Part shown: piece by piece, positions 25,961 to 41,633 of the stretch | How positions within the stretch are numbered: position 1 is the first letter of the stretch | Layout of the letters: every line of letters begins with the position of its first letter | From: an uncultured Hyphomicrobiaceae bacterium | GTDB taxonomy: Bacteria; Pseudomonadota; Alphaproteobacteria; Rhizobiales; CALHAX01 | Reading direction: 5' to 3' | Assembly: GCA_937931785.1 (NCBI GenBank) | Contig: CALHAX010000061.1 | Coordinates: 1 to 47,070, forward strand | DNA length: 47,070 nt | The notes under the pieces: generated by a model | What the model was told of the DNA's origin: nothing | Databases searched by the model: none | What the model saw: only the letters and a program-made list of their open reading frames with translations | Translations under genes and position numbers: made by a program

Positions 25961-26701
25961 ATGCGATCTCGCGCCTGGCTGCCCCTTGGCTGTTTCATAC
26001 TGATTGGGTGCTCTGCACCCGGCCATGCGGAATCCTCTGCGCTGACGGCACGTGGCATCGTTCGCGCGAGCATTGAAACTACAATTTCGACTGAACTGAT
26101 TGCTGCTGTCGAGAGCCTTCCGTTCAAGGTTGGCGAAGCGTTCAAGACTGGTTCCATTCTCGTCACGTTTGATTGTGCACGCTACAACGCTGAACGCCGC
26201 GCTGCGGTGGCTGAGAAAGACACGACTCGACTTGAGGTTGTCGCAAACGAAAAACTTCTTCGACACAACGCCATCGGTGGAGTCGAGGTCGAGATCTCGC
26301 GCGCCCGATATCAGCAGATGGTTGCAAGGGTTGAAGCGCTGGAGGTCCGAGAACGGCAATGTGCGATCAAGGCTCCATTTGATGGCCATGTGGTTGAACG
26401 TCAGATCCAGCCCTTCGAAATGTCGAAACCGAATACTCCCTTACTGAAACTTGTGAACCACGAACTGGAAGTGCACCTCATCGTGCCGTCGCAGTGGCTC
26501 AACTGGTTGCGGCGTGGCGCCTCCTTCACCTTCCAGATTGACGAAACAGGCGCAACACTGCGTGGTGATGTGACTCGTATCAGCCCTGTTGTCGATCCGA
26601 TCAGTCGAACAGTCCGCGTGATTGGTTTATTTTCCTCTCCCCATGGCCTGGTTATTCCGGGAATGAGCGGCGCCGTTCTTTTCACGACACCGGAGGGATG
26701 A
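25961..26701 (+). CDS. HlyD-like periplasmic adaptor, probable lipoprotein
   Basis: 246 residues. The N-terminus MRSRAWLPLGCFILIGC has a lipobox-like LIGC (Cys17), so it may be lipid-anchored in the periplasm. The body is that of a membrane-fusion adaptor: a first lipoyl half (VESLPFKVGEAFKTGSILVTFD), a short coiled-coil hairpin (NAERRAAVAEKD to QMVARVEALEVRE), and a second lipoyl half (CAIKAPFDGHVVERQIQPFE). A beta-barrel part with ISPVVDPISRTVRVIG, an RND-adaptor motif, ends it. The start has GGAG six bases upstream. It is the first of three tightly spaced genes; the next starts 3 bp after its stop. Confidence 0.8.
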   Translation: MRSRAWLPLGCFILIGCSAPGHAESSALTARGIVRASIETTISTELIAAVESLPFKVGEAFKTGSILVTFDCARYNAERRAAVAEKDTTRLEVVANEKLLRHNAIGGVEVEISRARYQQMVARVEALEVRERQCAIKAPFDGHVVERQIQPFEMSKPNTPLLKLVNHELEVHLIVPSQWLNWLRRGASFTFQIDETGATLRGDVTRISPVVDPISRTVRVIGLFSSPHGLVIPGMSGAVLFTTPEG

Positions 26702-26704
26702 CTC

Positions 26705-28132
26705 GTGGCCAGCGCTGCAATCAAACATACGCACCAATCACCGGACACCGCTGACGCAATGGCCACTCAAGACCGGTCCCCTGCGATGCCTTTCAAGGCA
26801 ACACAAGCAGAGCATAGTGGATTGCGGCGGCTGCTCGCGTTCGAAGACCGGATACGAGCGTGTGAAACACGTCTTGAACTTGAACACACCCTTGCCAACG
26901 AATTGCGTGGGCTTGTCGGTGCGCGACAGGTTATCGTTCTGCATAGAAAAACGCTTTCGAAGTGGCGCTTGTCCTGCATTTCGAGCATGCCGAACAGGGA
27001 ACGCGATGCGCCTCTGGTTCGCGCAATTGAGCACTTTGTTTGTGCGCAGGCCGCAACCGCCGATCCTGAAACAGCATCGCTATGCTATCTCGATGCCATT
27101 GCAACCGAAAATCAGGACCTGATTTCAGCCTATCCCTTTCGCGAAGCCATCTGGCTGCCAATTCGCTTTCGCAGCGGCGAGATATTTGCCGGACTTCTTC
27201 TCTTGCATGAGAAACCATGGAATGCCTCGTCATGCGAATTGCTCCAGCGTCAGGCGCCGATGATCTCGGACACCTGGTGCGCCATTGCCGGACGACGCAG
27301 CCTGCGACCGTCGACCGGACGAAGGCGTGCGCTCGGTTTGGTTGCGTGTTCTCTTGCCCTTGCCTGTATGGCGCTACCCGTGTCCATGACAACACTTGCT
27401 CCAATCGAAATCGTTGCACGCGATCCGGTGCTTGTGACCGCACCCATCGACGGTGTGATTGATGTTATTCATGCCTCCCCGAACAGGAAAGTCATCGCAG
27501 GGCAACCCTTACTCAGTTTTATCGATACGGAATTACGCAACGCGTTTGAATTGGCCCAACGCGAAGCTGATGTCGCCACTTCACGTTACAGCCAACTCTC
27601 GCAAGCCGCATTCACGGATGAAAAATCACGCCATGAGCTTGGCATAGCCAAAACCGAGATGAAATTGCGACTAGCGCAACGTGATTACGCAAAAGAGCGA
27701 CTTGACCTCATTGTCGTTCGCGCTGACCGGGACGGATTGCTCATCTACCAGGACAAGAGCAGGCTTCTTGGGCGACCGGTTGCCGTTGGTGAGCGGCTGA
27801 TGCGGATCGCGCAACCAGGCAAGGTTTATGGTAAAATTTCTCTTCCGGTGGCTGATGCGATTGCTCTAACGCGTGGTGGGCAGGCACGCTTTTTTCTTGA
27901 TGCCAACCCAACGCGATCACTCACGGCAAAGGTGGAAACGGAGAGCTACCATGCAGAGCCAGACGCAACCGGAGCGCTGGTTTATTCCGTTCGTGCGGCC
28001 CTTGACGCGGATCAACCGGTGCCACGCATCGGATCACGGGGAACAGCGCAGCTCTTCGGAGGGGATGTGCCTCTTGGATTTTTCCTGTTCCGACGCCCTA
28101 TCTCATGGGTACGACAAAAATTCGGTCTGTAA
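26705..28132 (+). CDS. GAF-like domain / HlyD membrane adaptor
   Basis: 475 residues from a GTG start with CGGAGGG upstream. Residues about 40-195 are cytoplasmic and GAF-like (LLAFEDRIRACETRLELEHT...LRGLVGARQVIVLH, IWLPIRFRSGEIFAGLLLLHE). One membrane segment lies at 209-226. The rest is periplasmic: lipoyl halves VLVTAPIDGVIDVIHASP and VVRADRDGLLIYQDKS, with a coiled-coil hairpin of about 70 residues between them. So it could couple a cytoplasmic ligand or interaction to an envelope assembly. No ABC or RND pump is adjacent. The GAF call is from fold-like pattern and is less certain than the HlyD part. Confidence 0.72.
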   Translation: MASAAIKHTHQSPDTADAMATQDRSPAMPFKATQAEHSGLRRLLAFEDRIRACETRLELEHTLANELRGLVGARQVIVLHRKTLSKWRLSCISSMPNRERDAPLVRAIEHFVCAQAATADPETASLCYLDAIATENQDLISAYPFREAIWLPIRFRSGEIFAGLLLLHEKPWNASSCELLQRQAPMISDTWCAIAGRRSLRPSTGRRRALGLVACSLALACMALPVSMTTLAPIEIVARDPVLVTAPIDGVIDVIHASPNRKVIAGQPLLSFIDTELRNAFELAQREADVATSRYSQLSQAAFTDEKSRHELGIAKTEMKLRLAQRDYAKERLDLIVVRADRDGLLIYQDKSRLLGRPVAVGERLMRIAQPGKVYGKISLPVADAIALTRGGQARFFLDANPTRSLTAKVETESYHAEPDATGALVYSVRAALDADQPVPRIGSRGTAQLFGGDVPLGFFLFRRPISWVRQKFGL

Positions 28133-28138
28133 ACTGAT

Positions 28139-30259
28139 ATGACTGAATTTGAAGCACACACATTACCAGCACTTCGCCAGGAGCTTGAGCTCATACCTGG
28201 TGCATCCAATCCCTCCGGCGCAAGCCAATGGTTGATCTACGACCCCCTACGGCACAAGTATTTTGCGGTTGAAACCGATGCTGCAACACTTCTCGGATTA
28301 TGGGCAGAAACGAGTGAAGACGCATTCATTGCAAAAGCCAGCGCGCGACTGTGCCGTCCCGTTACACGGGACGAAGTCGCGGAACTTATCTATTTTCTCT
28401 ACAGCAACACCCTGACGGAACAGGCGCCAGACGGAAACGCCCGAAGCTACGCTGATCAGGCCCGGGCAGCACATCGCAGCCTCCTGAGCCAAGCGGTTCA
28501 TAGCTACCTGTTCGTTCGCATCCCGCTCGTTCGCCCCAACCGACTCCTGCAAGCAACATTACCATTCGTGTTGCCCTTCTTTGCACGCGCCACCTGGATT
28601 ATGATCTCTCTGTTCGGCATCCTCGGAGTCTATCTTGTATCGCGCCAATGGGACGTTTTTGTTGCGACGTTTCTGGATTTCATCTCGCTTGATGGTCTCA
28701 TGGCCTACGGGCTCGCACTGGTTTTAATCAAAGTGCTCCATGAGCTGGGCCATGCCTATGCCGCAACCTATCATGGGGTTCGCGTGACCAGCATGGGCGT
28801 CGCTTTCATGGTGATGATGCCCTTGCTCTACACAGATGTTACGAATGCCTGGCGTCTTCGATCGCACGCGAAGCGGATGCAGATCGATGGTGCGGGGATC
28901 ATGGTGGAGCTTGGCCTTGCCTGTCTTGCCACATGCTTATGGATTTTTCTCCCTGATGGCCCACTACGATCTGCTGCGTTTGTGACAGCCACAAGTAGCT
29001 GGATCATTTCACTTGCGGTGAACCTCAACCCGTTCATGAAATTCGATGGCTACTACCTGCTGAGCGACGGTCTTGGCATTCCGAACATTCACACACGTGC
29101 GTTTGCGCTCGCACGATGGCATCTGCGTGAAGTGCTTTTCAAGCTGGGGCATCCGCAGCCTGATACATTCCAACCTGCCACGGCACGGGCGCTTGTTTTT
29201 TACGCATGGGGCATCTGGATTTACCGGCTTATTCTTTTTATTGGCATCGCTTTGCTTGTCTATCACCTGTTCTTCAAGCTGCTTGGTGTCATCCTGTTTG
29301 CCATCGAGATCGTCTGGTTTATCGCACTGCCAATTGGGAAAGAAATTCGCGTTTGGTGGGCTTTGAGGAGTGAGATCATGACTCGCAAACGTACGCTTGT
29401 GTCCGTAGCCATTCTGGCAAGTTGCGTCGCGCTTCTTGTGGTACCCATGCGGTGGCCAGTTGTGCTGCCCGGTATCATTGAATCAAGCAACGAAGTTGCG
29501 ATTCACGTGCCCCGCGCTGCGCAGGTCACTTCCTGGAAGATCCAGGAAAGTCAACGTGTGGCCTCTGGACAGATTCTTGCGGTCCTACGTGCTCCGGAAC
29601 TGACGCACGAGCTCAACCAGACATCCCATACGATTGCGCTATTGGATCTTAGGCTAGCCCGTATTGCGGGCGATAGCGCCGATCTCTTGCACCGTTCGAC
29701 AATTTTGCAGGAACGGCGGGCACGCCTCGAAGAATATGCAGGGTATAAGCGCCAGATTGACTCACTTGTGGTGAAAGCGCCGTTCGCTGGTGCACTCCGC
29801 GACGTCGATACGGATCTGCACGCAGGAGCATGGGTCGGCAAACCACAACGGCTGACACGTCTCGTGCAGATGGATAGACCATCCGTTCGCGCCTACGCCA
29901 GCGAAGATGTTCTCTGGAAACTAGCGGTCGGAAGCGTTGGGGTTTTTATCCCCGATGATCCGCAACTCGGCGCTATTCAAGTTCGCCTCAATGAAACTTC
30001 GCAGACTGGTGTCGAACAGCTCGACATTCGCTATATCGCCTCGGTTCATGGTGGCCCTATTTCATCGGAGCGGGACGGGGACGGCAAGATTCGCCCACGC
30101 AAAAGTCAGTATCTTCTGCGATTAAGTCTGACAGGAGATGCACCCAAAATGCGACGTGTGCTCCGCGGTGTGGTTCATCTTCCCGGGAGGGCCGAATCGC
30201 TTGGATCCGCGATCTGGACGCAGGTCTTTCGCGTTTTTATTCGTGAGGCCGGCCTTTGA
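28139..30259 (+). CDS. M50 site-2-protease-like membrane protein with lipoyl/HlyD C-terminus
   Basis: 706 residues, start 6 bp after the GAF-HlyD gene. Residues about 15-95 (WLIYDPLRHKYFAVETDAATLLGLW) resemble a PqqD-like domain. The membrane core has the zinc motif HELGH at 201-205 and the distal NPFMKFDG at 297-304, the metal-ligand Asp motif of site-2 proteases; both motifs are intact, so proteolysis is possible. About eight hydrophobic segments span 145-435. The periplasmic C-terminus (about 440-700) has HlyD-type lipoyl halves (EVAIHVPRAAQVTSWKIQES, LVVKAPFAGALRDVDTD). Such M50-HlyD proteins occur beside adaptors of unknown export systems; the substrate is not known. Confidence 0.8.
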   Translation: MTEFEAHTLPALRQELELIPGASNPSGASQWLIYDPLRHKYFAVETDAATLLGLWAETSEDAFIAKASARLCRPVTRDEVAELIYFLYSNTLTEQAPDGNARSYADQARAAHRSLLSQAVHSYLFVRIPLVRPNRLLQATLPFVLPFFARATWIMISLFGILGVYLVSRQWDVFVATFLDFISLDGLMAYGLALVLIKVLHELGHAYAATYHGVRVTSMGVAFMVMMPLLYTDVTNAWRLRSHAKRMQIDGAGIMVELGLACLATCLWIFLPDGPLRSAAFVTATSSWIISLAVNLNPFMKFDGYYLLSDGLGIPNIHTRAFALARWHLREVLFKLGHPQPDTFQPATARALVFYAWGIWIYRLILFIGIALLVYHLFFKLLGVILFAIEIVWFIALPIGKEIRVWWALRSEIMTRKRTLVSVAILASCVALLVVPMRWPVVLPGIIESSNEVAIHVPRAAQVTSWKIQESQRVASGQILAVLRAPELTHELNQTSHTIALLDLRLARIAGDSADLLHRSTILQERRARLEEYAGYKRQIDSLVVKAPFAGALRDVDTDLHAGAWVGKPQRLTRLVQMDRPSVRAYASEDVLWKLAVGSVGVFIPDDPQLGAIQVRLNETSQTGVEQLDIRYIASVHGGPISSERDGDGKIRPRKSQYLLRLSLTGDAPKMRRVLRGVVHLPGRAESLGSAIWTQVFRVFIREAGL

Positions 30260-34160: not shown

Positions 34161-35432
34161 TCACTGCACGGCACCGGGATTGTCGAGACTGTCTGACCCT
34201 TCGAACGTGATGTCTTTTTGATCAACGACAGCCACAGCGCGTTCAATGGCTTTGGTTTGCACGAGTAATGCATCGATGGCCGCCTGCACGACAGCATTTC
34301 CTTCCGTGTTGCCTTCGCCAATCATCTGATCGTACGCCTCGCCACCTTCGGCGCGCGCCACCATGGCTGACATCTTCGTCATTGTGCTTTGGAGTGCTGC
34401 GCGAAGCGCAGCGTCGGTTCTGGCAGACTTGGTTTTGACGAGATCCGCCATGCTCGCACCTTCAACCATTGAACTGTCGATCCGTTTGTAACGACCGAGG
34501 TAGACATTCTGGATGCCCAGTGCGTCATAGTAATGCGAGTTGTGTGTGTTGTCGGCGAAGCAATCGTGCTCCTCCTCCGGGTCGTGGAGAAGGAGGCCGA
34601 GTTTCATGCGTTCGCCAGCGAGTTCTCCGTAGGAAAGCGACCCCATGCCCGTGAAGAGCGCGCGGATCAGATCTTCCGGTTGACCGTTGACCAAACCATT
34701 TCGTGCTGCTCCGTTTTCAGCCCATTGTACGACCATCCATTCGAGGTCATCGATCAGCAAATCTGTCGCTGTCACGAGATAGGCAGCACGGCGTGCGCAA
34801 TTGCCACCGGTGCAGTTCTTTGTATCATAGTCCGTTGCTGGACGGTTCCCGGCACCTGCGTCTGACCCGTTCAAATCCTGTCCCCAGAGAAGGAACTCGA
34901 TTGCGTGGTAACCTGTCGCGACATTGGCCTCGATGCCACCCGCTTCCTGTAAGGTTTCGGACAAAAGTGCTTTGGTGATCGTGCTGGTATCGACGGTTTC
35001 GCCACCAACTTTCAGACTCCTGTTGGCAATCACGTTTGCGGTGTAGAGACTGTTCTCCTCGGACTCCGTGCCATAATCTCCCGCGACGTAGTCAATCAAC
35101 CCCTCGTCCAGTGGCCACGCGTTCACCTTGCCTTCCCAGTCATCCACAATGGCATTGCCGAAACGGTAGACCTCGGTTTGTTGATACGGAACACGTGCCG
35201 CCAACCAGCTCTTGCGCGCCGCATCCAATGTTGCCTGCGACGGTGCTGCAATCATAGCTGCGATTGCAGCTCGCATCGTCTTCGCAGTGGTCAGTGAATC
35301 TTCGTACCCGGCCTGTGCTATATCTGCATACGTCTTTGCGACAGCCTTGACGCTTGGCGCCTCGGCATAGGCCGGTGTCAGTGTGAGCGCCATTACAGTG
35401 GCTATTGACGCAAGTCGGGAGAACGGATGCAT
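34161..35432 (-). CDS. Imelysin-family (M75) iron-regulated periplasmic protein
   Basis: 423 residues from the ATG at 35432, with GAGAGGC upstream; this gives a clean signal peptide (LASIATVMALTLTPAYAEA). Imelysin motifs are present: WPLDEGLIDYVAGDYG, and GYHAIEFLLWGQD, which holds the HxxE pattern of the family. A C-terminal helical repeat region follows. Imelysins such as IrpA are periplasmic and iron-regulated. Despite the M75 peptidase name the family is regarded as a metal or haem/iron uptake factor without proven proteolysis. It follows the Cys-rich gene by 37 bp and lies in an iron region with an FbpA/FbpB pair and a DUF4856 protein. Confidence 0.9.
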   Translation of the reverse strand: MHPFSRLASIATVMALTLTPAYAEAPSVKAVAKTYADIAQAGYEDSLTTAKTMRAAIAAMIAAPSQATLDAARKSWLAARVPYQQTEVYRFGNAIVDDWEGKVNAWPLDEGLIDYVAGDYGTESEENSLYTANVIANRSLKVGGETVDTSTITKALLSETLQEAGGIEANVATGYHAIEFLLWGQDLNGSDAGAGNRPATDYDTKNCTGGNCARRAAYLVTATDLLIDDLEWMVVQWAENGAARNGLVNGQPEDLIRALFTGMGSLSYGELAGERMKLGLLLHDPEEEHDCFADNTHNSHYYDALGIQNVYLGRYKRIDSSMVEGASMADLVKTKSARTDAALRAALQSTMTKMSAMVARAEGGEAYDQMIGEGNTEGNAVVQAAIDALLVQTKAIERAVAVVDQKDITFEGSDSLDNPGAVQ

Positions 35433-35469
35433 TGCGTGCCTCTCGTCTGTTTGAATCAGATTGATGTGG

Positions 35470-36024
35470 TTAGTGTTTGAGATGTGCGCCGCTTTGACCG
35501 TCAAACGTTTCGGCACTCATGAGGGCTGCGGCGTTCACAACGTCTTGTGTTGCGAGAACGATACCTTCACCCCGAAGCGTTGCAGCGAACTTCAACCCGG
35601 TTTCCATCGGCTCATCGAGTTCGTTTGTTTCCAGTAATGCATAAGCGCAGGCGCGCATCGCCGGACAGACATCGTTCTGGCCAGCGGCGATCATGGAAAT
35701 GGCAAGACATTCATCCCGACAGAAGCCCGGGCAATGTGTTGGAAATGTTTTCAGCGTGCGTCCTGCCGCTGAGCGTAACGTCTTGACCCAGCAGGAGAGG
35801 TCATTGACAGCTTTTTTTGCTCCGGTTGTGCCGAGGGTCGAGGAGAACTGACTCCAGCACATTTCCCAACTGGAAATATCGCCCGTTTCGAGACCACGCA
35901 TCCAGCAGCGAAATCCGAAACCTACGAGAGCTTTGCTCGGATCTGGTTCGCTCTCGAAACCATCGGGCCGAAGAACAGAACTGGACAATTGCGGTCTGGT
36001 ACTTGTGTTTCGTTTAATTGGCAT
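35470..36024 (-). CDS. Cysteine-rich hypothetical protein upstream of imelysin
   Basis: 184 residues from the second of two adjacent ATGs, chosen because TCGGAGG ends five bases before it; longer upstream starts lack a Shine-Dalgarno. Family not recognised. No signal peptide, so likely cytoplasmic. Cysteines are unusually dense and cluster: FRCWM, WEMCWSQF, LSCWVKTL, then HCPGFCRDECLAI (CxxxCxxxC), DVCPAM and RACAY. This looks like a metal- or cluster-binding protein. The tail HLKH ends near the imelysin start, so both are probably co-transcribed. An iron-related role is inferred from context only. Confidence 0.6.
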   Translation of the reverse strand: MPIKRNTSTRPQLSSSVLRPDGFESEPDPSKALVGFGFRCWMRGLETGDISSWEMCWSQFSSTLGTTGAKKAVNDLSCWVKTLRSAAGRTLKTFPTHCPGFCRDECLAISMIAAGQNDVCPAMRACAYALLETNELDEPMETGLKFAATLRGEGIVLATQDVVNAAALMSAETFDGQSGAHLKH

Positions 36025-36264
36025 CATGGCCTCCGACATGCGAAAGCGCTGCGCCATGAAGCACAAAAATGCGGATGGGTTGCGTTGCGATGATTGGTCG
36101 GCATACCTGAGCGCACCGTGCACTCATCAGGGGGATGATCATGTCTGGCTCCAATATCCGAGGTTAAAGGCCTCGGGATCGGTATCGATCTTACCGGCCA
36201 CACAGAGGGCCGTCCAAGTCAGGAAGCGTGAAATCCAAGCACATGTCAACGCCTGAGCGAAAGA

Positions 36265-36380: not shown

Positions 36381-38039
36381 TCACCGGGTCATCCGAGCGA
36401 GCGCTGTATTCATGACAATGACTGGAATGATACCCGTCGCGACGATGGCAAGGGCGGGTAGTGCCGCCTCCTCAAGTAACTCGTCCTTGGCGAACTGGTA
36501 GACATATGTCGCAAGCGTTTCGAAGTTAAATGGTCGCAGCAAAAGCGTCATAGGTAATTCCTTCATGACGTCTACGAACACAAGTAATCCACCCGCCAAC
36601 AGCGACTTCTTGATCAACGGCAGGACAATGATGCGCAAACTCTCCCCAAACCCTCGACCCAAAGTCCTGCTCGCATTCATCATGTTTGGTGGCAGACGTT
36701 CCAGCCCCGTCGATACGGCACCGTACCCGATGGCTTGAAAGCGAATGACACACGCAAGGATGACCAGTCCCAAACTCCCTGTCAGCCATCCTTCATAAGA
36801 AACGCCCAACGTTGATTGCAGAACGTTGGCGAGTTGTGTGTCCACAATTCCGCCGGCGGTCACAACGCCGATGGCGAGTATCGTTCCCGGGAACGCGTAC
36901 CCCACAGACGCCAGCTGTGCCGCACGTTTCAAACGGACCCCGCCTTGATAGGTCGCGATGATTCCCATGAACGCTGCAGCAGCCATGATGACGAAAGCTA
37001 CGACAAAAGCCAGGAAGAATGAATTGAAGGCCGCTGAAAGCATCTGACTGTCAAAGTCCAGTGAATACCCGCTGAGTACAAAATCAAGCAACACACCGAC
37101 CGGCAACAGGAAACCGATGGCAATTGGAAGCACACACACCAGTGCATAGCCGACGGCCGCGAAACCACCTACGCGTTGCCTGGCGAGTGTCTTCGCCCGT
37201 CGTGTCGTATCCTTGTACTGCCGTCGTGCTCTCGCGAGTTGCTCCACGATCAGTAGAGCAATAATGAACAGAAAGCACAGCACCGAGATTTGCGCTGCTG
37301 CCGGAAGGCTGTTCATGCCAAGCCACACGTTGAAAATTCCAAGCGTGAGCGTCTCGATGGCAAAATACTCCACGGTCCCGAAATCAGAAATAGTTTCCAT
37401 CAAAACCAAGGCAAGTCCTGCAACGATTGCAGGACGCGCCATCGGAATTGCCACCAATCGAAATACGTCACGGTTGGTCATCAAACCAACTTCGAACAGT
37501 GACGCCGGAGTCAGAACAAAGGCCGTACGCGCCATCAAGTAAACATAGGGATACAATACAGCGCCCATGACGAGAACAGCCCCGTGCATGGAACGAATTT
37601 CCGGGAACCAATAATCCCGAACACTTTGCCAACCAAATAGTGAACGCAACGCACTTTGAACCGGTCCCGCGAATTCAAGAAAATCGGTCAGCGTGTACGC
37701 AACCAGATAGGCAGGCACAGCCGCAGGAAGAAGCAGCATCCATTCAATGACTCGGCGTCCGGGAAACTCATAGCGAAAGACGATCCAGGCTGTCGTTATA
37801 CCGAACACCAGGCTCACGAGACCGACACCAAGCATCAAAACAAGCGTGTTGCCCACATAGCGCGGCAACACGGTTGTAAAGAGATGCGCCCACAGATCTC
37901 CGCTGTCGCCGGTCGCTGCAACAAAAATCGCCAGTACCGGCGCAATGAAGATGCCGACAAGAATGAGTGTCAGCACCATCCAGAGATTGATTGCGTATGG
38001 CGGTTTGTTTCGACGCGCCTGCGAGCCGACAGCTACCAT
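36381..38039 (-). CDS. Ferric iron ABC transporter permease (FbpB/FutB-like)
   Basis: 552 residues with about twelve hydrophobic segments, i.e. two fused permease halves as in FbpB/SfuB. Each half has an EAA-like loop after GR: VFRLVAIPMARPAIVAG in the first and LRIIVLPLIKKSLLAGG in the second. FAIETLTLGIFNVWLG is also typical. It would carry ferric ion across the inner membrane, fed by the binding protein encoded just upstream (overlap 7 bp, so translation is coupled). No ATPase gene follows; transcription ends in the 356-bp gap before the Cys-rich gene. The ATPase must come from elsewhere if the system works. Confidence 0.88.
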   Translation of the reverse strand: MVAVGSQARRNKPPYAINLWMVLTLILVGIFIAPVLAIFVAATGDSGDLWAHLFTTVLPRYVGNTLVLMLGVGLVSLVFGITTAWIVFRYEFPGRRVIEWMLLLPAAVPAYLVAYTLTDFLEFAGPVQSALRSLFGWQSVRDYWFPEIRSMHGAVLVMGAVLYPYVYLMARTAFVLTPASLFEVGLMTNRDVFRLVAIPMARPAIVAGLALVLMETISDFGTVEYFAIETLTLGIFNVWLGMNSLPAAAQISVLCFLFIIALLIVEQLARARRQYKDTTRRAKTLARQRVGGFAAVGYALVCVLPIAIGFLLPVGVLLDFVLSGYSLDFDSQMLSAAFNSFFLAFVVAFVIMAAAAFMGIIATYQGGVRLKRAAQLASVGYAFPGTILAIGVVTAGGIVDTQLANVLQSTLGVSYEGWLTGSLGLVILACVIRFQAIGYGAVSTGLERLPPNMMNASRTLGRGFGESLRIIVLPLIKKSLLAGGLLVFVDVMKELPMTLLLRPFNFETLATYVYQFAKDELLEEAALPALAIVATGIIPVIVMNTALARMTR

Positions 38040-40042
38040 CCAACCCGGTCGATCAACTTTTGAGCATCAGGTGCCAACTCGGCGATGCGTGAGATAGGCA
38101 TCTGATCCTCCTTGAAGTCGCCCCAGGACTTGAGTTCCGCTGACGGCTCGATTGCGGGGTTGACCGGATACTCGAAATTGATCTCTCCGTACAGGTCTTG
38201 CGCTTCCTTCGAGGTCAGGAATTCGAGAAAACGAATGGCTTCTGCCTTGTTTTTGGAATACCTGGCAACACCACCTCCCGAAATGTTTATGTGCGTGCCG
38301 CGACCGTCCTGGTTTGGGAAAATCAACCTGACAGCCTCGGCCCATTTCCGCTGTGCAGGCTTGTCGGAGGCTTTGAGTTTCCCGAAGTAGTAATTGTTGA
38401 TGATCGCAATGTCGCACACACCTTCGTAGATGGCTTTGACCTGCGCGCGGTCGTTTCCCTGCGGACGGCGCGCGAGGTTGGACACGACGCCACTCGCCCA
38501 CTTCTCGGCCTCGTCGATGCCGGACGCATTGATTAATGACGCAATCAGGGCACGATTGTAGATATGACTGCCGGGCCGGGCGCAGATCCGTCCCCGCCAC
38601 CTGGCGTCAGCCAACGCTTCGTATCTCTGTATCCCGAGCGCGTCTTGAGCGCGTTTGGCAACAACGATAACGCGGGCGCGCTTGGAAAGAGCGAACCAGG
38701 TGTTCTGTGAAGAACGAAGATGCGACGGCACGTTCGCTTCAAGCGTTTTCGACACAACTTCAGCAAGCAAGTTCTTATCGGCATAGACACTCAAACGCGC
38801 AATATCGACTGTCAGGATCACGTCGGCCGGACTGCGTTTTCCTTCTGCCTGAAGACGTTGCGCCAACCCCTTGGAGGCGAAAACAACATTGATCTTTGTT
38901 CCGGTCTTTGCCGTGTACGCCTCCAGGAAGGGTTTGATCAGGAAGGGTTGTCGGTGTGAGTAGACGTTCAATTCCTGCGCAGATGCCGGGAGTGCGAACA
39001 CAGTGACGAGCAATGCCACGACCACAGCGCCGACAATCGGCCAGCGTTTCGAGAAAGACGAAATGGAAGCACGCATATGCGCAAACCCCTTTGAAGCATG
39101 TATGACGGTGATACGAAAAGCATTACGAAACGGATCGAGGTAGAGCGTTTTCAATGCGTGTGGTGCCGTGTTTCCTGTTGTAACGCCGAAAGCTGTCGGT
39201 TTGTTGTCATCTGCGAGACACAGACTTCCCCCCATTCGATCCCAAACCGCCAGGACGGCACCAAAATTCTGGTCGTAGTGCCGGTCTTCGATCGAGTGGT
39301 GGATTTGGTGTTGTGCTGGCGAGATCAACCATCGCTCTACGATTGACCCGTATGAAATCCAGATATGGGAATGTCGCAGATTTGAACCAGCAACATTGAA
39401 CAGAAACAGAAACGCATTGGCACCGAGGATCGCAACGAGTTCAGCGCGACTGCCAAAAAAGAACAAGAAGCTGGCAATAATGACAGCCTGCACCAGTACC
39501 GATCTCAAGGCGAAGATCACGCCTTCGACCGGATGGGTTCGATAAACTGTCACCGGCGTCAGAACTTCAGCGCTGTGGTGAACTTGATGAAAGCACCACA
39601 GCAGCGGCCAACGATGCAGAGCGCGGTGAACCAGATACTTCGTGGCATCATCCAGAAGGAACAGCACCATCGTGAAAGCTACGGCAATCGCCCAACCGGG
39701 CACAGACGGCCATAGCGTAATGCGCCCATCAAACCAGATATGAAACGAGTGGAATAGCAAGGTCGCGACCGCGAGACGCGATACGAGTCGAGGAAGGACA
39801 CCCATCATGACAAGCTTGTTCAAAAGCAGGATCTTGTAGTCGCCACGTGCTGAGGATGAAAACCAGACCCGAGAGGAAAAGAACGTCTTCAGCGTTCGAC
39901 CGGGCGACCACTTCGCAACGGCGAACTGCACAACGAGTGCGACAAGAATCGCGGACAAAAAATATCCGACGAAGATGCGCTTCTGCGGATTGAGAACTGG
40001 ACCGATCAGCTGGTCGAAATACTCTGAAACAATTGTGTCCAT
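38033..40042 (-). CDS. Sterol desaturase-family domain fused to FbpA/FutA-type iron-binding protein
   Basis: 669 residues from the ATG at 40042. Residues about 1-310 are a fatty-acid hydroxylase/sterol desaturase-type membrane domain with its di-iron His motifs: HRALH, HQVHH, RHSH and HQIHH. About residue 323 starts MRASISSFSKRWPIVGAVVV, a complete signal peptide ending ALPASAQE. The remaining 347 residues match a Fe(3+) ABC binding protein (ELNVYSHRQ, ASKGLAQRL, INNYYFGK with the iron-ligand Tyr pair). The ATG at 39076 has AAGGGG upstream, so the binding protein may also be made alone. There is no stop between the two parts. The permease gene overlaps its 3' end. Confidence 0.8.
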   Translation of the reverse strand: MDTIVSEYFDQLIGPVLNPQKRIFVGYFLSAILVALVVQFAVAKWSPGRTLKTFFSSRVWFSSSARGDYKILLLNKLVMMGVLPRLVSRLAVATLLFHSFHIWFDGRITLWPSVPGWAIAVAFTMVLFLLDDATKYLVHRALHRWPLLWCFHQVHHSAEVLTPVTVYRTHPVEGVIFALRSVLVQAVIIASFLFFFGSRAELVAILGANAFLFLFNVAGSNLRHSHIWISYGSIVERWLISPAQHQIHHSIEDRHYDQNFGAVLAVWDRMGGSLCLADDNKPTAFGVTTGNTAPHALKTLYLDPFRNAFRITVIHASKGFAHMRASISSFSKRWPIVGAVVVALLVTVFALPASAQELNVYSHRQPFLIKPFLEAYTAKTGTKINVVFASKGLAQRLQAEGKRSPADVILTVDIARLSVYADKNLLAEVVSKTLEANVPSHLRSSQNTWFALSKRARVIVVAKRAQDALGIQRYEALADARWRGRICARPGSHIYNRALIASLINASGIDEAEKWASGVVSNLARRPQGNDRAQVKAIYEGVCDIAIINNYYFGKLKASDKPAQRKWAEAVRLIFPNQDGRGTHINISGGGVARYSKNKAEAIRFLEFLTSKEAQDLYGEINFEYPVNPAIEPSAELKSWGDFKEDQMPISRIAELAPDAQKLIDRVGW
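39076..39110 (-). promoter_or_regulatory. Internal start and ribosome-binding site for the iron-binding protein
   Basis: On the - strand CAAAGGGGTTTGCGCAT precedes ATG at 39076. AAGGGG is spaced about 9 bases from the start, and the codons that follow encode a normal signal peptide. This favours independent translation of the 347-residue binding protein even though the upstream desaturase frame reads straight through. Confidence 0.55.
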
Positions 40043-40111: not shown

Positions 40112-41536
40112 CTAGTCGTTCTCTGCGCCAGAACCGCCACCAAGCGCTTTTGCAAGTACAGCGATATCACCGTCGATCGCGTTGCTCATTGCACTGATGC
40201 CGAATTTGTCGACCATCAGCTTCTGCACCTTGGCCATATGGAGCATGTACTCCCCCCAGGCGACGGTTTGATCGCGGACATAGTTGCCCTTGCTGTCGAT
40301 ATCGACAACCTGGCTGGCGTTCAACAACAACGGACCGGCACCGATCAGGCGGTTGAGCTTCGTTGCGGTTTCGCCAAGGTTGTCCTTGCCGGTTTGCAAG
40401 GCGAGGCTGAAGCCTTTCAACTCTCCCCAGTGCTTGATGTACGTGCCATTCATCTTGGACGTATTACCGTTGGCATCCATGATGATCTTGAGCTTTTCCA
40501 TATCTTTATAGACCGACCCGGCATATTTGAACGTCGCTTCCGCGAGAACCATCTGCCAGTTCTTTGCAATCGTTGCGGCATGCTCCTTCAACGACGCGCG
40601 CTGGGCATCGGAAAGTTTTTCACCTTTTGCACTTGCGATCAGCTTGCGCCCATCGAGGAACGCTTTGGTTATGGTGTGCAAGTACCGGGTCTTGCCCCCC
40701 TTGTCGGAAGCGGCGGCGTAGTATGCAGGCCCAAAAACATATTCAGACTTGAGGTCGATTTTACCATCCCCGTTTGCGTCAGCGACAGCAAATACCTCTT
40801 CTTTTTGCTTGGCAATGGCATATGCCTGTTTCGGGTTGATTGCGAGTGTGTGTGCGGGAGTTCCGAAATATCCGAAAGCTTCGTCCCAGACATGCTCCTT
40901 GCCCGTGTACGGTGCCCCGTCGCTGTAAGGTTTGTCGTTTGGTTTCGTATCTGCGCCCAATCCTTCATCGAGGTAATTGTCAACGGCCTGATTGTACGAC
41001 ACTGCACCCATGATGAACTTGGAGATCAATTGCGGATAATTGTACCCATTTGCGACGTCGACGCCACCGTTTGCTTCCGAAGCCTTGTCAATCCAGAACG
41101 CGACGAGTTCGACGCCCGTCATGTTGTTCGGCATGCCCGTGATCGTGCCTTTGAACGTCTTATCCGCGAGATTCTTCTTCTTGCTGAGACCATCGATACC
41201 TGATTGCTTGACGATGAACGGCCCCTTGCTCGACGGCGCGATGATCGCGCGACCGGCATCCTTGCCAGCGAAGTAGGACATCATTTGTGCTTTGAGGTCC
41301 GGATTGGAATTGCCGTTCCCCTTGCCCGCCAACTTCTTGAGCGAGTCATGCAACGCATGGCGTGCGATCTGACCGGAGTAGGAAACAGAGTTCTTCTTGT
41401 CACCGCTGTACTCTTTGACGGTTACCGGAAAGCCTGAGTAGCTCATGTCGTCAGCCACTGCGGCGACGGGCGATCCGGTAACGATTACGGCGGTCCACAT
41501 CGCGGTTGAAAGTCGCGATCTGATATCTCCTGTCAT
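40112..41536 (-). CDS. DUF4856 domain-containing secreted protein
   Basis: 474 residues from the ATG at 41536, chosen for AGAGGAA upstream and a clean signal peptide (STAMWTAVIVTGSPVAAVADD). The mature part has SYSGQIARHALHDSLKKLAG, GVELVAFWIDKASE and WDEAFGYFGTPAH, as in DUF4856 proteins. VADANGDGKIDLKSEY contains a near-EF-hand DxNxDGxI calcium loop with the last acid one place late. DUF4856 proteins are often found with imelysin genes, and imelysin is nearby. It is first in the unit, 69 bp before the desaturase/FbpA gene, and downstream of candidate Irr and RirA boxes. Probably a periplasmic iron- or calcium-linked protein; function unproven. Confidence 0.82.
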   Translation of the reverse strand: MTGDIRSRLSTAMWTAVIVTGSPVAAVADDMSYSGFPVTVKEYSGDKKNSVSYSGQIARHALHDSLKKLAGKGNGNSNPDLKAQMMSYFAGKDAGRAIIAPSSKGPFIVKQSGIDGLSKKKNLADKTFKGTITGMPNNMTGVELVAFWIDKASEANGGVDVANGYNYPQLISKFIMGAVSYNQAVDNYLDEGLGADTKPNDKPYSDGAPYTGKEHVWDEAFGYFGTPAHTLAINPKQAYAIAKQKEEVFAVADANGDGKIDLKSEYVFGPAYYAAASDKGGKTRYLHTITKAFLDGRKLIASAKGEKLSDAQRASLKEHAATIAKNWQMVLAEATFKYAGSVYKDMEKLKIIMDANGNTSKMNGTYIKHWGELKGFSLALQTGKDNLGETATKLNRLIGAGPLLLNASQVVDIDSKGNYVRDQTVAWGEYMLHMAKVQKLMVDKFGISAMSNAIDGDIAVLAKALGGGSGAEND

Positions 41537-41616
41537 CTTCAATTCCTCTTGTTCAAGCAGCACGGCATTGTTTTCTAACCGCGCGTCGGCATCGCGGGCG
41601 AGTGTAACGGGCGCAG

Positions 41617-41633
41617 TTTAGAACGAATCTAAA
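41617..41633. promoter_or_regulatory. Irr box (ICE element) upstream of the DUF4856-iron operon
   Basis: TTTAGAACGAATCTAAA matches the rhizobial iron control element TTTRGAAYNRTTCYAAA at 16 of 17 positions. It lies about 80 bp before the DUF4856 start, downstream of a TATATT (- strand, 41660-41655) that could be a -10 box. Irr binding there would be repressing under iron limitation or could tune the operon with RirA; direction is not shown. Confidence 0.65.

What the first reader, a model, noticed from the sequence alone, without database searches (positions are those of the whole stretch)
38033..40042. In-frame fusion of a sterol-desaturase-type enzyme with a periplasmic iron-binding protein
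Seen: a desaturase domain with four His motifs (HRALH, HQVHH, RHSH, HQIHH) reads without a stop into a full FbpA/FutA-like protein that keeps its own signal peptide, ATG (39076) and AAGGGG site. Known: both domains use iron, but one is a membrane oxygenase and the other a secreted ABC binding protein. Inference: either stop-codon loss gives a dual product (free binding protein plus membrane-tethered version), or the fusion anchors the iron donor at a membrane di-iron enzyme.
Basis: partly seen in the sequence, partly recalled or inferred. Interest (0 to 1): 0.68.

Follow-up and report, generated by a model that had tools for sequence, protein, structure and literature searches.

The report
Fused enzyme–iron-binding gene with inner start
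In this bacterium and a group of relatives, the gene for a membrane enzyme runs without a stop into the gene for the protein that catches iron for uptake, yet the second protein keeps its own start and export signal, so one gene probably makes both a joined and a separate form.

Summary
Window 38033-40042 (-) is one open frame of 669 aa: an FA_hydroxylase-type di-iron enzyme, then a FutA/FbpA-type Fe(III)-binding protein with its own signal peptide. It is not a sequencing slip: the same fusion occurs in 15 of the 80 related loci kept and in 3 further genomes of a 385-genome class search, 40-68% identical. In 38 of the 80 the two genes are separate neighbours; in 24 no such gene was found behind; 3 stop at a contig edge. 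A DUF4856 gene precedes the enzyme in 77 of 80, and in the window an Irr-box-like palindrome precedes that. In the window's clade the junction has no invariant residue; its best-kept position is an inner ATG (M323) with, on average, a Shine-Dalgarno-like site. Signal peptide and spacing match those of the separate relatives; no tether was added. I favour a two-output gene: free periplasmic iron-binding protein from the inner start, plus a read-through precursor, most likely cut by signal peptidase. Membrane anchoring as an iron donor is not supported but not excluded. Translation and cleavage are inferred, not measured.

The parts
39125..40042 (-). Membrane FA_hydroxylase/sterol-desaturase-type domain (about residues 1-306 of the fusion), His motifs 139-143, 152-156, 223-226, 245-249
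   Evidence: Pfam PF04116 E 1.1e-23; 86 of 305 positions invariant in 13 fusions of the clade
39077..39124 (-). Read-through linker (about residues 307-322) between the enzyme and the inner start
   Evidence: stop-free in the 11 fusions of the clade tested; EA..C at its start kept in 10-11 of 13, otherwise variable
39086..39092 (-). AAAGGGG, Shine-Dalgarno-like site 9 nt before the inner start
   Evidence: sequence; duplex energy -7.8 kcal/mol
39074..39076 (-). Inner ATG (M323), probable second translation start
38978..39076 (-). Signal peptide of the iron-binding protein (residues 323-355), ending in an ASA cleavage-type motif
   Evidence: simple hydropathy and -3/-1 rule; no trained predictor available
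38033..38974 (-). FutA/FbpA-type Fe(III)-binding domain (residues 357-669 and stop); Y361, Y495, Y551, Y552 invariant in 14 aligned fusions
36381..38039 (-). ABC permease (552 aa, two BPD_transp_1 stretches); its ATG overlaps the end of the fusion frame by 7 nt
40112..41563 (-). DUF4856 protein, conserved upstream partner of the enzyme (first start codon 41563; likely start ATG 41536)
   Evidence: Pfam PF16148 E 2.5e-10; a relative lies upstream of the enzyme in 77 of 80 loci
41617..41633 (.). Irr-box/ICE-like palindrome, 1 mismatch to TTTAGAANNNTTCTAAA (consensus recalled)
   Evidence: the genome's only other site (0 mismatches) lies before an MbfA gene; Irr encoded
34161..35516 (-). Imelysin (Peptidase_M75) gene downstream, probably iron-related
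   Evidence: Pfam PF09375 E 1e-82; membership of the same transcript not shown

Best explanation
The gene is a naturally fused pair from a conserved iron operon (DUF4856, membrane di-iron enzyme, FutA/FbpA-type Fe(III)-binding protein, ABC permease). SHOWN: one open frame, the same fusion in relatives, separate but adjacent genes in others, and in the window's clade a conserved inner ATG with, on average, a Shine-Dalgarno-like site. INFERRED: ribosomes starting at M323 make an ordinary preprotein, exported and cut after ASA to give free periplasmic iron-binding protein in excess. Ribosomes starting at M1 make the enzyme followed by the same signal peptide, which crosses the membrane N-in/C-out and is most likely cut at the same site, leaving the enzyme with a short membrane tail and releasing more binding protein. 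The fusion would thus behave as a polyprotein with a built-in second start.
For: Fused frame in 15 of 80 loci kept and in 3 of the 384 other genomes of the class search. In G000, G502, G771 and G652 the fused copy is the only FutA-type protein found at E<=1e-6, so it has to supply the transporter if this uptake route is used. Window's clade (11 in the first set): inner ATG 34-38 codons before the mature domain in 11 of 11; mean SD energy -5.56, against -2.56 at random in-frame positions (7 of 20000 draws as low) and -3.99 for synonymous recodings (3 of 1000). Two clade members found later (L164, L165) carry it too. Every one of the 11 clade rows that has the binding gene behind the enzyme is open through the linker and none is split (shuffle product 1e-5 under independence). 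Cleavage-type motif in 19 of 19 fused and 38 of 38 separate; core-to-domain spacing 9.2 against 9.3. Of 36 separate pairs with an ATG to score, 17 overlap by 4-20 nt, so a start of the binding gene inside the end of the enzyme gene is common without fusion.
Against: No expression, ribosome or proteome data. SD energy is weak in L076 (= G231; -0.4) and, outside the clade, in L093 (-2.2) and L100 (0.2); no single clade member is significant by synonymous shuffles (smallest p 0.065), so the signal is a clade mean. L166 has no ATG, GTG or TTG near its signal peptide (only ATG 46 codons before, SD -0.4), and L140 shows only a TTG among ambiguous bases, so an inner start is not universal. The cleavage rule is permissive (every fused and separate protein passes). 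The stop-free product treats related sequences as independent and looks only at rows still having both genes side by side. L081 counts as fused although its frame leaves the binding-protein similarity after residue 624 of 793. Cleavage of an internal signal in this protein is untested.
Confidence: 0.66

Rival explanations
1. Membrane-anchored iron donor: the fusion stays uncut, holding the iron-binding protein on the periplasmic side of the di-iron enzyme to hand over iron or to dock at the permease.
For: Both halves are iron-protein families; in the window's clade no split neighbour pair was seen; L166 lacks a clear inner start while its genome G652 has no other FutA-type protein.
Against: The enzyme's iron site is expected on the cytoplasmic side (recalled for the superfamily), the binding domain on the periplasmic side; no flexible tether and a cleavage-type motif in 19 of 19 (permissive rule); inner start kept in the window's clade.
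Confidence: 0.13
2. Pure polyprotein: only the long frame is translated and signal peptidase makes both proteins, as recalled for FbcH (cytochrome b/c1) of Bradyrhizobium; the inner ATG is a relic.
For: Same architecture; L166 lacks an inner start near its signal; weak SD in L076, L093, L100.
Against: M323 is the best-kept junction position and its SD-like site is stronger than synonymous recoding gives as a clade mean; binding proteins are usually needed in excess (general knowledge).
Confidence: 0.16
3. Artefact: a missed stop or frameshift error in the assembly joins two genes.
For: In the gamma cases fused and separate copies differ in length by 1 nt at the junction (L100 v L096, L104 v L123), so single MAGs there could be errors.
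Against: Same open frame in 13 sequences of the window's clade, window included, among them a single-contig genome (G771).
Confidence: 0.03

Closest known systems
FutA/FbpA/SfuC-type Fe(III)-binding proteins (Mannheimia FbpA 1q35, Trichodesmium IdiA 6g7n, Synechocystis FutA 2pt1; organisms recalled or from titles)
   Same: Near whole-domain similarity, invariant tyrosines, adjacent ABC permease
   Different: Those solved entries are of the binding protein alone; here the domain is the second half of one frame with a membrane enzyme
SAR11 sfuABC iron operon (PMC2864753, passages read)
   Same: In two loci titled Pelagibacteraceae/Pelagibacterales (L121, L125) DUF4856, enzyme, binding protein and permease stand in the same order; sfuC rose 16-fold (mRNA) and 27-fold (protein) under iron limitation
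   Different: In those loci the genes are separate, overlapping by 11 and 20 nt. 'Desaturase' does not occur in that paper's main text; I did not check whether its strain has the enzyme gene
FbcH cytochrome b/c1 fusion of Bradyrhizobium (recalled; searches found no text on it)
   Same: Membrane protein and secreted protein in one frame, joined through an internal signal peptide
   Different: Unrelated domains; no conserved inner start is known to me there
Desaturase-creatininase fusion in the same genome (G000:C36)
   Same: Related FA_hydroxylase half (35% identity) joined through a hydrophobic segment to a second domain
   Different: Second domain is creatininase, not an iron-binding protein

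Membership tests
FutA/FbpA-type Fe(III)-binding proteins | Full-length similarity to characterised members | tested here: met
   28 solved sequences at E<=1e-3, best 2.7e-88 over residues 1-313 of the 315 given
FutA/FbpA-type Fe(III)-binding proteins | Iron-ligand tyrosines (mapping to FutA Y13/Y143/Y199/Y200 recalled) | tested here: met
   Y361, Y495, Y551, Y552 invariant in 14 aligned fusions; the mapping itself was not tested on a structure
FutA/FbpA-type Fe(III)-binding proteins | Free periplasmic protein | not testable with these tools
   signal peptide and cleavage-type motif present; product not measured
FA_hydroxylase superfamily (PF04116) | Profile match and His clusters | tested here: met
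   His residues 139, 143, 152, 155, 156, 245, 248, 249 invariant in 14 fusions
FA_hydroxylase superfamily (PF04116) | Di-iron lipid oxygenase activity | not testable with these tools
   substrate not assigned
Ornithine lipid hydroxylase OlsE (NF052566) | Score over the curated cut-off | tested here: not met
   40.9 bits against 475
Gene with inner in-frame translation start | Conserved start codon with ribosome-binding site | tested here: met
   as a clade mean (window's clade); weak in L076, L093, L100; not in L166, unclear in L140
Gene with inner in-frame translation start | Initiation observed | not testable with these tools
   no ribosome data
FbcH-like polyprotein (recalled) | Membrane protein and secreted protein in one frame with an internal signal peptide | tested here: met
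FbcH-like polyprotein (recalled) | Cleavage by signal peptidase at the internal signal | not testable with these tools
   motif only

The most novel reading that the evidence does not exclude
A repeatedly evolved, selected two-output gene in which one ribosome-binding site gives a membrane-linked enzyme-iron-carrier and the inner site gives free iron carrier, with the uncut form physically coupling iron capture to an iron-dependent, oxygen-using membrane enzyme, perhaps as an iron or oxygen sensor of the uptake operon.
Probability: 0.12. Interest if true: 0.75.

Novelty: new variant of a known kind. Interest (0 to 1): 0.5.

Why it matters
The iron-binding protein of a widespread iron uptake operon (its SAR11 form was proposed as an iron-limitation marker, PMC2864753) is encoded as the tail of a membrane enzyme in 15 of the 53 loci here that have both genes side by side. 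Annotation and proteomic surveys could name or count such a protein by one half. The loci also form a natural series (separate, overlapping, fused with an inner start, fused without a clear one) in which the making of gene fusions across the membrane can be tested, and they tie an unstudied DUF4856-enzyme pair to iron.

Tried and rejected
Sequencing or assembly error: rejected for the window's clade, left open for single gamma MAGs. Fusion private to the window: among 60 other genomes of the order no listed match spanned both halves, which looked like a private event until the enzyme half was searched. G107's 528-aa frame was an upstream extension of an ordinary binding protein. DUF4856 fold: the AlphaFold model (mean pLDDT 78.8) had no PDB match at E<=0.001 (182 at E<=10), so its function stays open. 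The fusion model (pLDDT 75.5, pTM 0.49) is confident only in the binding domain and was used only for the helix and linker layout. Transporter ATPase: none beside the permease in the window; the best of 33 matches in the genome is 45% identical and on another contig, so the partner is not established. The promoter scan found 1 site against 5.1 expected in shuffles, nothing usable. The random-position SD control was spoiled by N bases in one locus and was redone. Genome-wide the Irr-box pattern is no commoner than its backward control (2 forward and 2 reverse each); the argument rests on position.
Full report
WHAT IS THERE. On the minus strand, 40042-38033 is a single 669-residue frame. Residues 125-272 match Pfam FA_hydroxylase and 367-636 match solute-binding families. 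The second half aligns almost end to end with solved Fe(III)-binding proteins, best Mannheimia FbpA 1q35 (organism recalled). The frame's end overlaps the start of a 552-aa ABC permease gene by 7 nt. A DUF4856 gene lies upstream and an imelysin gene downstream.

IS IT REAL. With the whole protein as query, no listed match in 60 other genomes of the order (mostly one per family) spanned both halves; the list was cut at its weak end. Searching the enzyme half in 397 genomes of the order (38 with a match at E<=1e-25) found one genome of another family, G231, with the same fusion, 67% identical over the full length with one gap. Long frames of other hits (G008, G042, G082, G237) were not opened. 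Of the 80: 15 fused; 38 with a separate binding-protein gene behind the enzyme (mature domain 52-210 nt past the enzyme's stop in 37, 596 nt in L155); 27 with none found within 2.5 kb. Of these 27 I set aside L089, L122 and L135, where the contig ends at the enzyme, leaving 24; in L084, L090 and L141 only 0.6-0.9 kb follows. L076 is the G231 locus (same 17,465-base contig length and sequence). L081 is counted as fused, but its frame leaves the binding-protein similarity before the end, so it may carry a frameshift. A class search (385 genomes, E<=1e-110) found three more fusions, G502, G771 and G652; a 60-residue identity check found none of them among the earlier loci. Identity of the aligned fusions to the window is 40-68%.

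SURROUNDINGS. A DUF4856 gene ends 14-266 nt before the aligned enzyme part in 77 of 80 loci; exceptions L080, L154, L155. The permease follows in 13 of 15 fused and 35 of 38 separate loci. Ten neighbours that I picked by eye were checked by Pfam: four ABC ATPases (behind the permease in L087 and L093, convergent behind it in L102, divergent before DUF4856 in L094), three ferritin-like, two Fur-family, one subtilase. An imelysin gene was seen near the operon in one of the 80 loci, L078.

HISTORY. On a tree of 81 enzyme domains the fused label needs 7 changes, as many as strongly supported branches force. With L164-L166 added and the three contig-edge rows left out of the count it again needs 7 (6 forced, quick tree), or 5 when only fused and separate are compared. 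Changes cannot tell gain from loss. Fused rows lie in at least four places: the window's clade; L094+L140 beside separate L101; L104 beside separate L123; L093 and L100 around separate L096. L166 has a long branch and an unsure place. In L096/L100 and L123/L104 the copies differ in length by 1 nt at the junction, besides substitutions; these are single MAGs, so error is not excluded there. Three clade rows (L084-L086) end the enzyme with a stop and have no binding-protein gene found behind.

THE JUNCTION. Across 13 fusions of the window's clade the enzyme half has 86 of 305 invariant positions, the binding half 138 of 313, the 51-residue junction none. Its best-kept position is M323 (12 of 13; in L080 the ATG is two residues on), beside an EA..C motif at the enzyme's end (10-11 of 13). 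In the 11 members of the first set the mean SD duplex energy before this ATG is -5.56, against -2.56 for random in-frame positions (7 of 20000 draws as low) and -3.99 for synonymous recodings of the same peptides (3 of 1000). The strength is uneven: window -7.8, L076 only -0.4; no member alone is below p 0.065. L164 and L165, found afterwards, have it too (-6.4, -7.8); L165 is a close relative of L088, so it is not fully independent. Outside the clade it is weak in L093 (-2.2) and L100 (0.2), moderate in L094 (-3.4) and L104 (-4.8), unclear in L140 (ambiguous bases, only a TTG), and absent near the signal in L166. The linker before M323 is stop-free in 11 of 11. Being fused implies this for each row; the informative part is that no clade row with both genes side by side is split. 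The shuffle product of 1e-5 assumes independence, which related sequences violate. Cleavage-type motifs occur in 19 of 19 fused and 38 of 38 separate proteins by a permissive rule, and the hydrophobic-core-to-domain distance is 9.2 against 9.3 residues on average. Of 36 separate pairs with an ATG to score (2 of 38 had none), 17 overlap by 4-20 nt.

WHAT IT PROBABLY DOES. In G000, G502, G771 and G652 the fused copy is the only FutA-type protein found at E<=1e-6; G231 has a second, free one. The uptake system of the four therefore probably depends on it. Together with the intact export signal, the absence of a tether and the conserved inner start, this favours free periplasmic binding protein, made from M323 and probably also by cutting the long precursor. 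That the long form is made follows from the open frame and its preservation; it is inferred. Where an inner start seems to be missing (L166), cutting or anchoring of the long form would be the only source. Why the enzyme is there is open: its steady partner is DUF4856, whose predicted fold matched nothing solved. The ornithine-lipid hydroxylase model is the best NCBIfam hit but far below its cut-off.

IRON REGULATION. Upstream of DUF4856 lies a palindrome with one mismatch to the recalled Irr-box consensus. It is the only window site at up to 3 mismatches (0.74 expected), and 0 of 100 shuffles had one at up to 1 mismatch. The genome has one other such site, 40 nt before a gene over the NCBIfam cut-off for iron exporter MbfA (532 against 450 bits; Pfam Rubrerythrin and VIT1), and an Irr protein over its cut-off. 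The backward control pattern is equally frequent genome-wide, so the position is what argues for function. PMC3413700 (passages read) states that mbfA is one of two Rhodobacter sphaeroides genes with a predicted Irr-box; PMC4902296 (passages read) that Irr represses mbfA in Bradyrhizobium. Among 18 other loci examined, with approximate DUF4856 starts, L078 and L102 have a 1-mismatch site and L076 a 2-mismatch site; the other 15 have 4 or more mismatches. Several of those show sequences that look like Fur boxes (recalled, not tested). In SAR11, SfuC rose 16-fold in mRNA and 27-fold in protein on iron limitation (PMC2864753, passages read). PMC13271415 was seen as one passage; 'desaturase' does not occur in its main text.

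PRINT. Searches were seen as listings only (10 of 10, 0, 8 of 14 and 8 of 13 papers listed); no listed title or abstract start concerns this fusion, and none held DUF4856 together with iron. The library holds open-licence papers only, so this is not proof of absence. FbcH is recalled; one search found nothing and search 76 one unrelated paper. Inner in-frame starts in bacteria as such are known (search 77, listing only).

Noticed in passing
G000:C36, L002:589-2538 (-): The same genome has a second long fusion: a related FA_hydroxylase domain joined through a hydrophobic segment to a creatininase domain (649 aa). Similar long frames in G008, G042, G082 and G237 were not opened.
   Followed up: partly
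window 41617-41633: Irr-box-like palindrome; the genome's only other site at up to 1 mismatch lies 40 nt before an MbfA gene.
   Followed up: yes
L078, L102 upstream of DUF4856: Irr-box-like sites also in a Filomicrobium-titled locus and in a locus that groups with Pelagibacterales in the tree, while other loci seem to have Fur-box-like sites: the same operon may have swapped regulators.
   Followed up: partly
L077, L082, L083, L093: Ferritin-like (L077, L083, L093) and Fur-family (L082, L083) genes lie near the operon.
   Followed up: partly
L037-L041 and the 24 loci without a binding gene: DUF4856 and this enzyme subfamily are paired even where no iron-binding gene follows, which suggests a shared function of their own.
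   Followed up: partly
window 35470-36123 (-): 217-aa frame between permease and imelysin, no Pfam or NCBIfam match; a related frame upstream of DUF4856 in L078 (45% identity) and weak matches in L077 and L082.
   Followed up: no
window 25961-30259 (+): Cluster of HlyD-like and large membrane proteins (judged by eye only).
   Followed up: no
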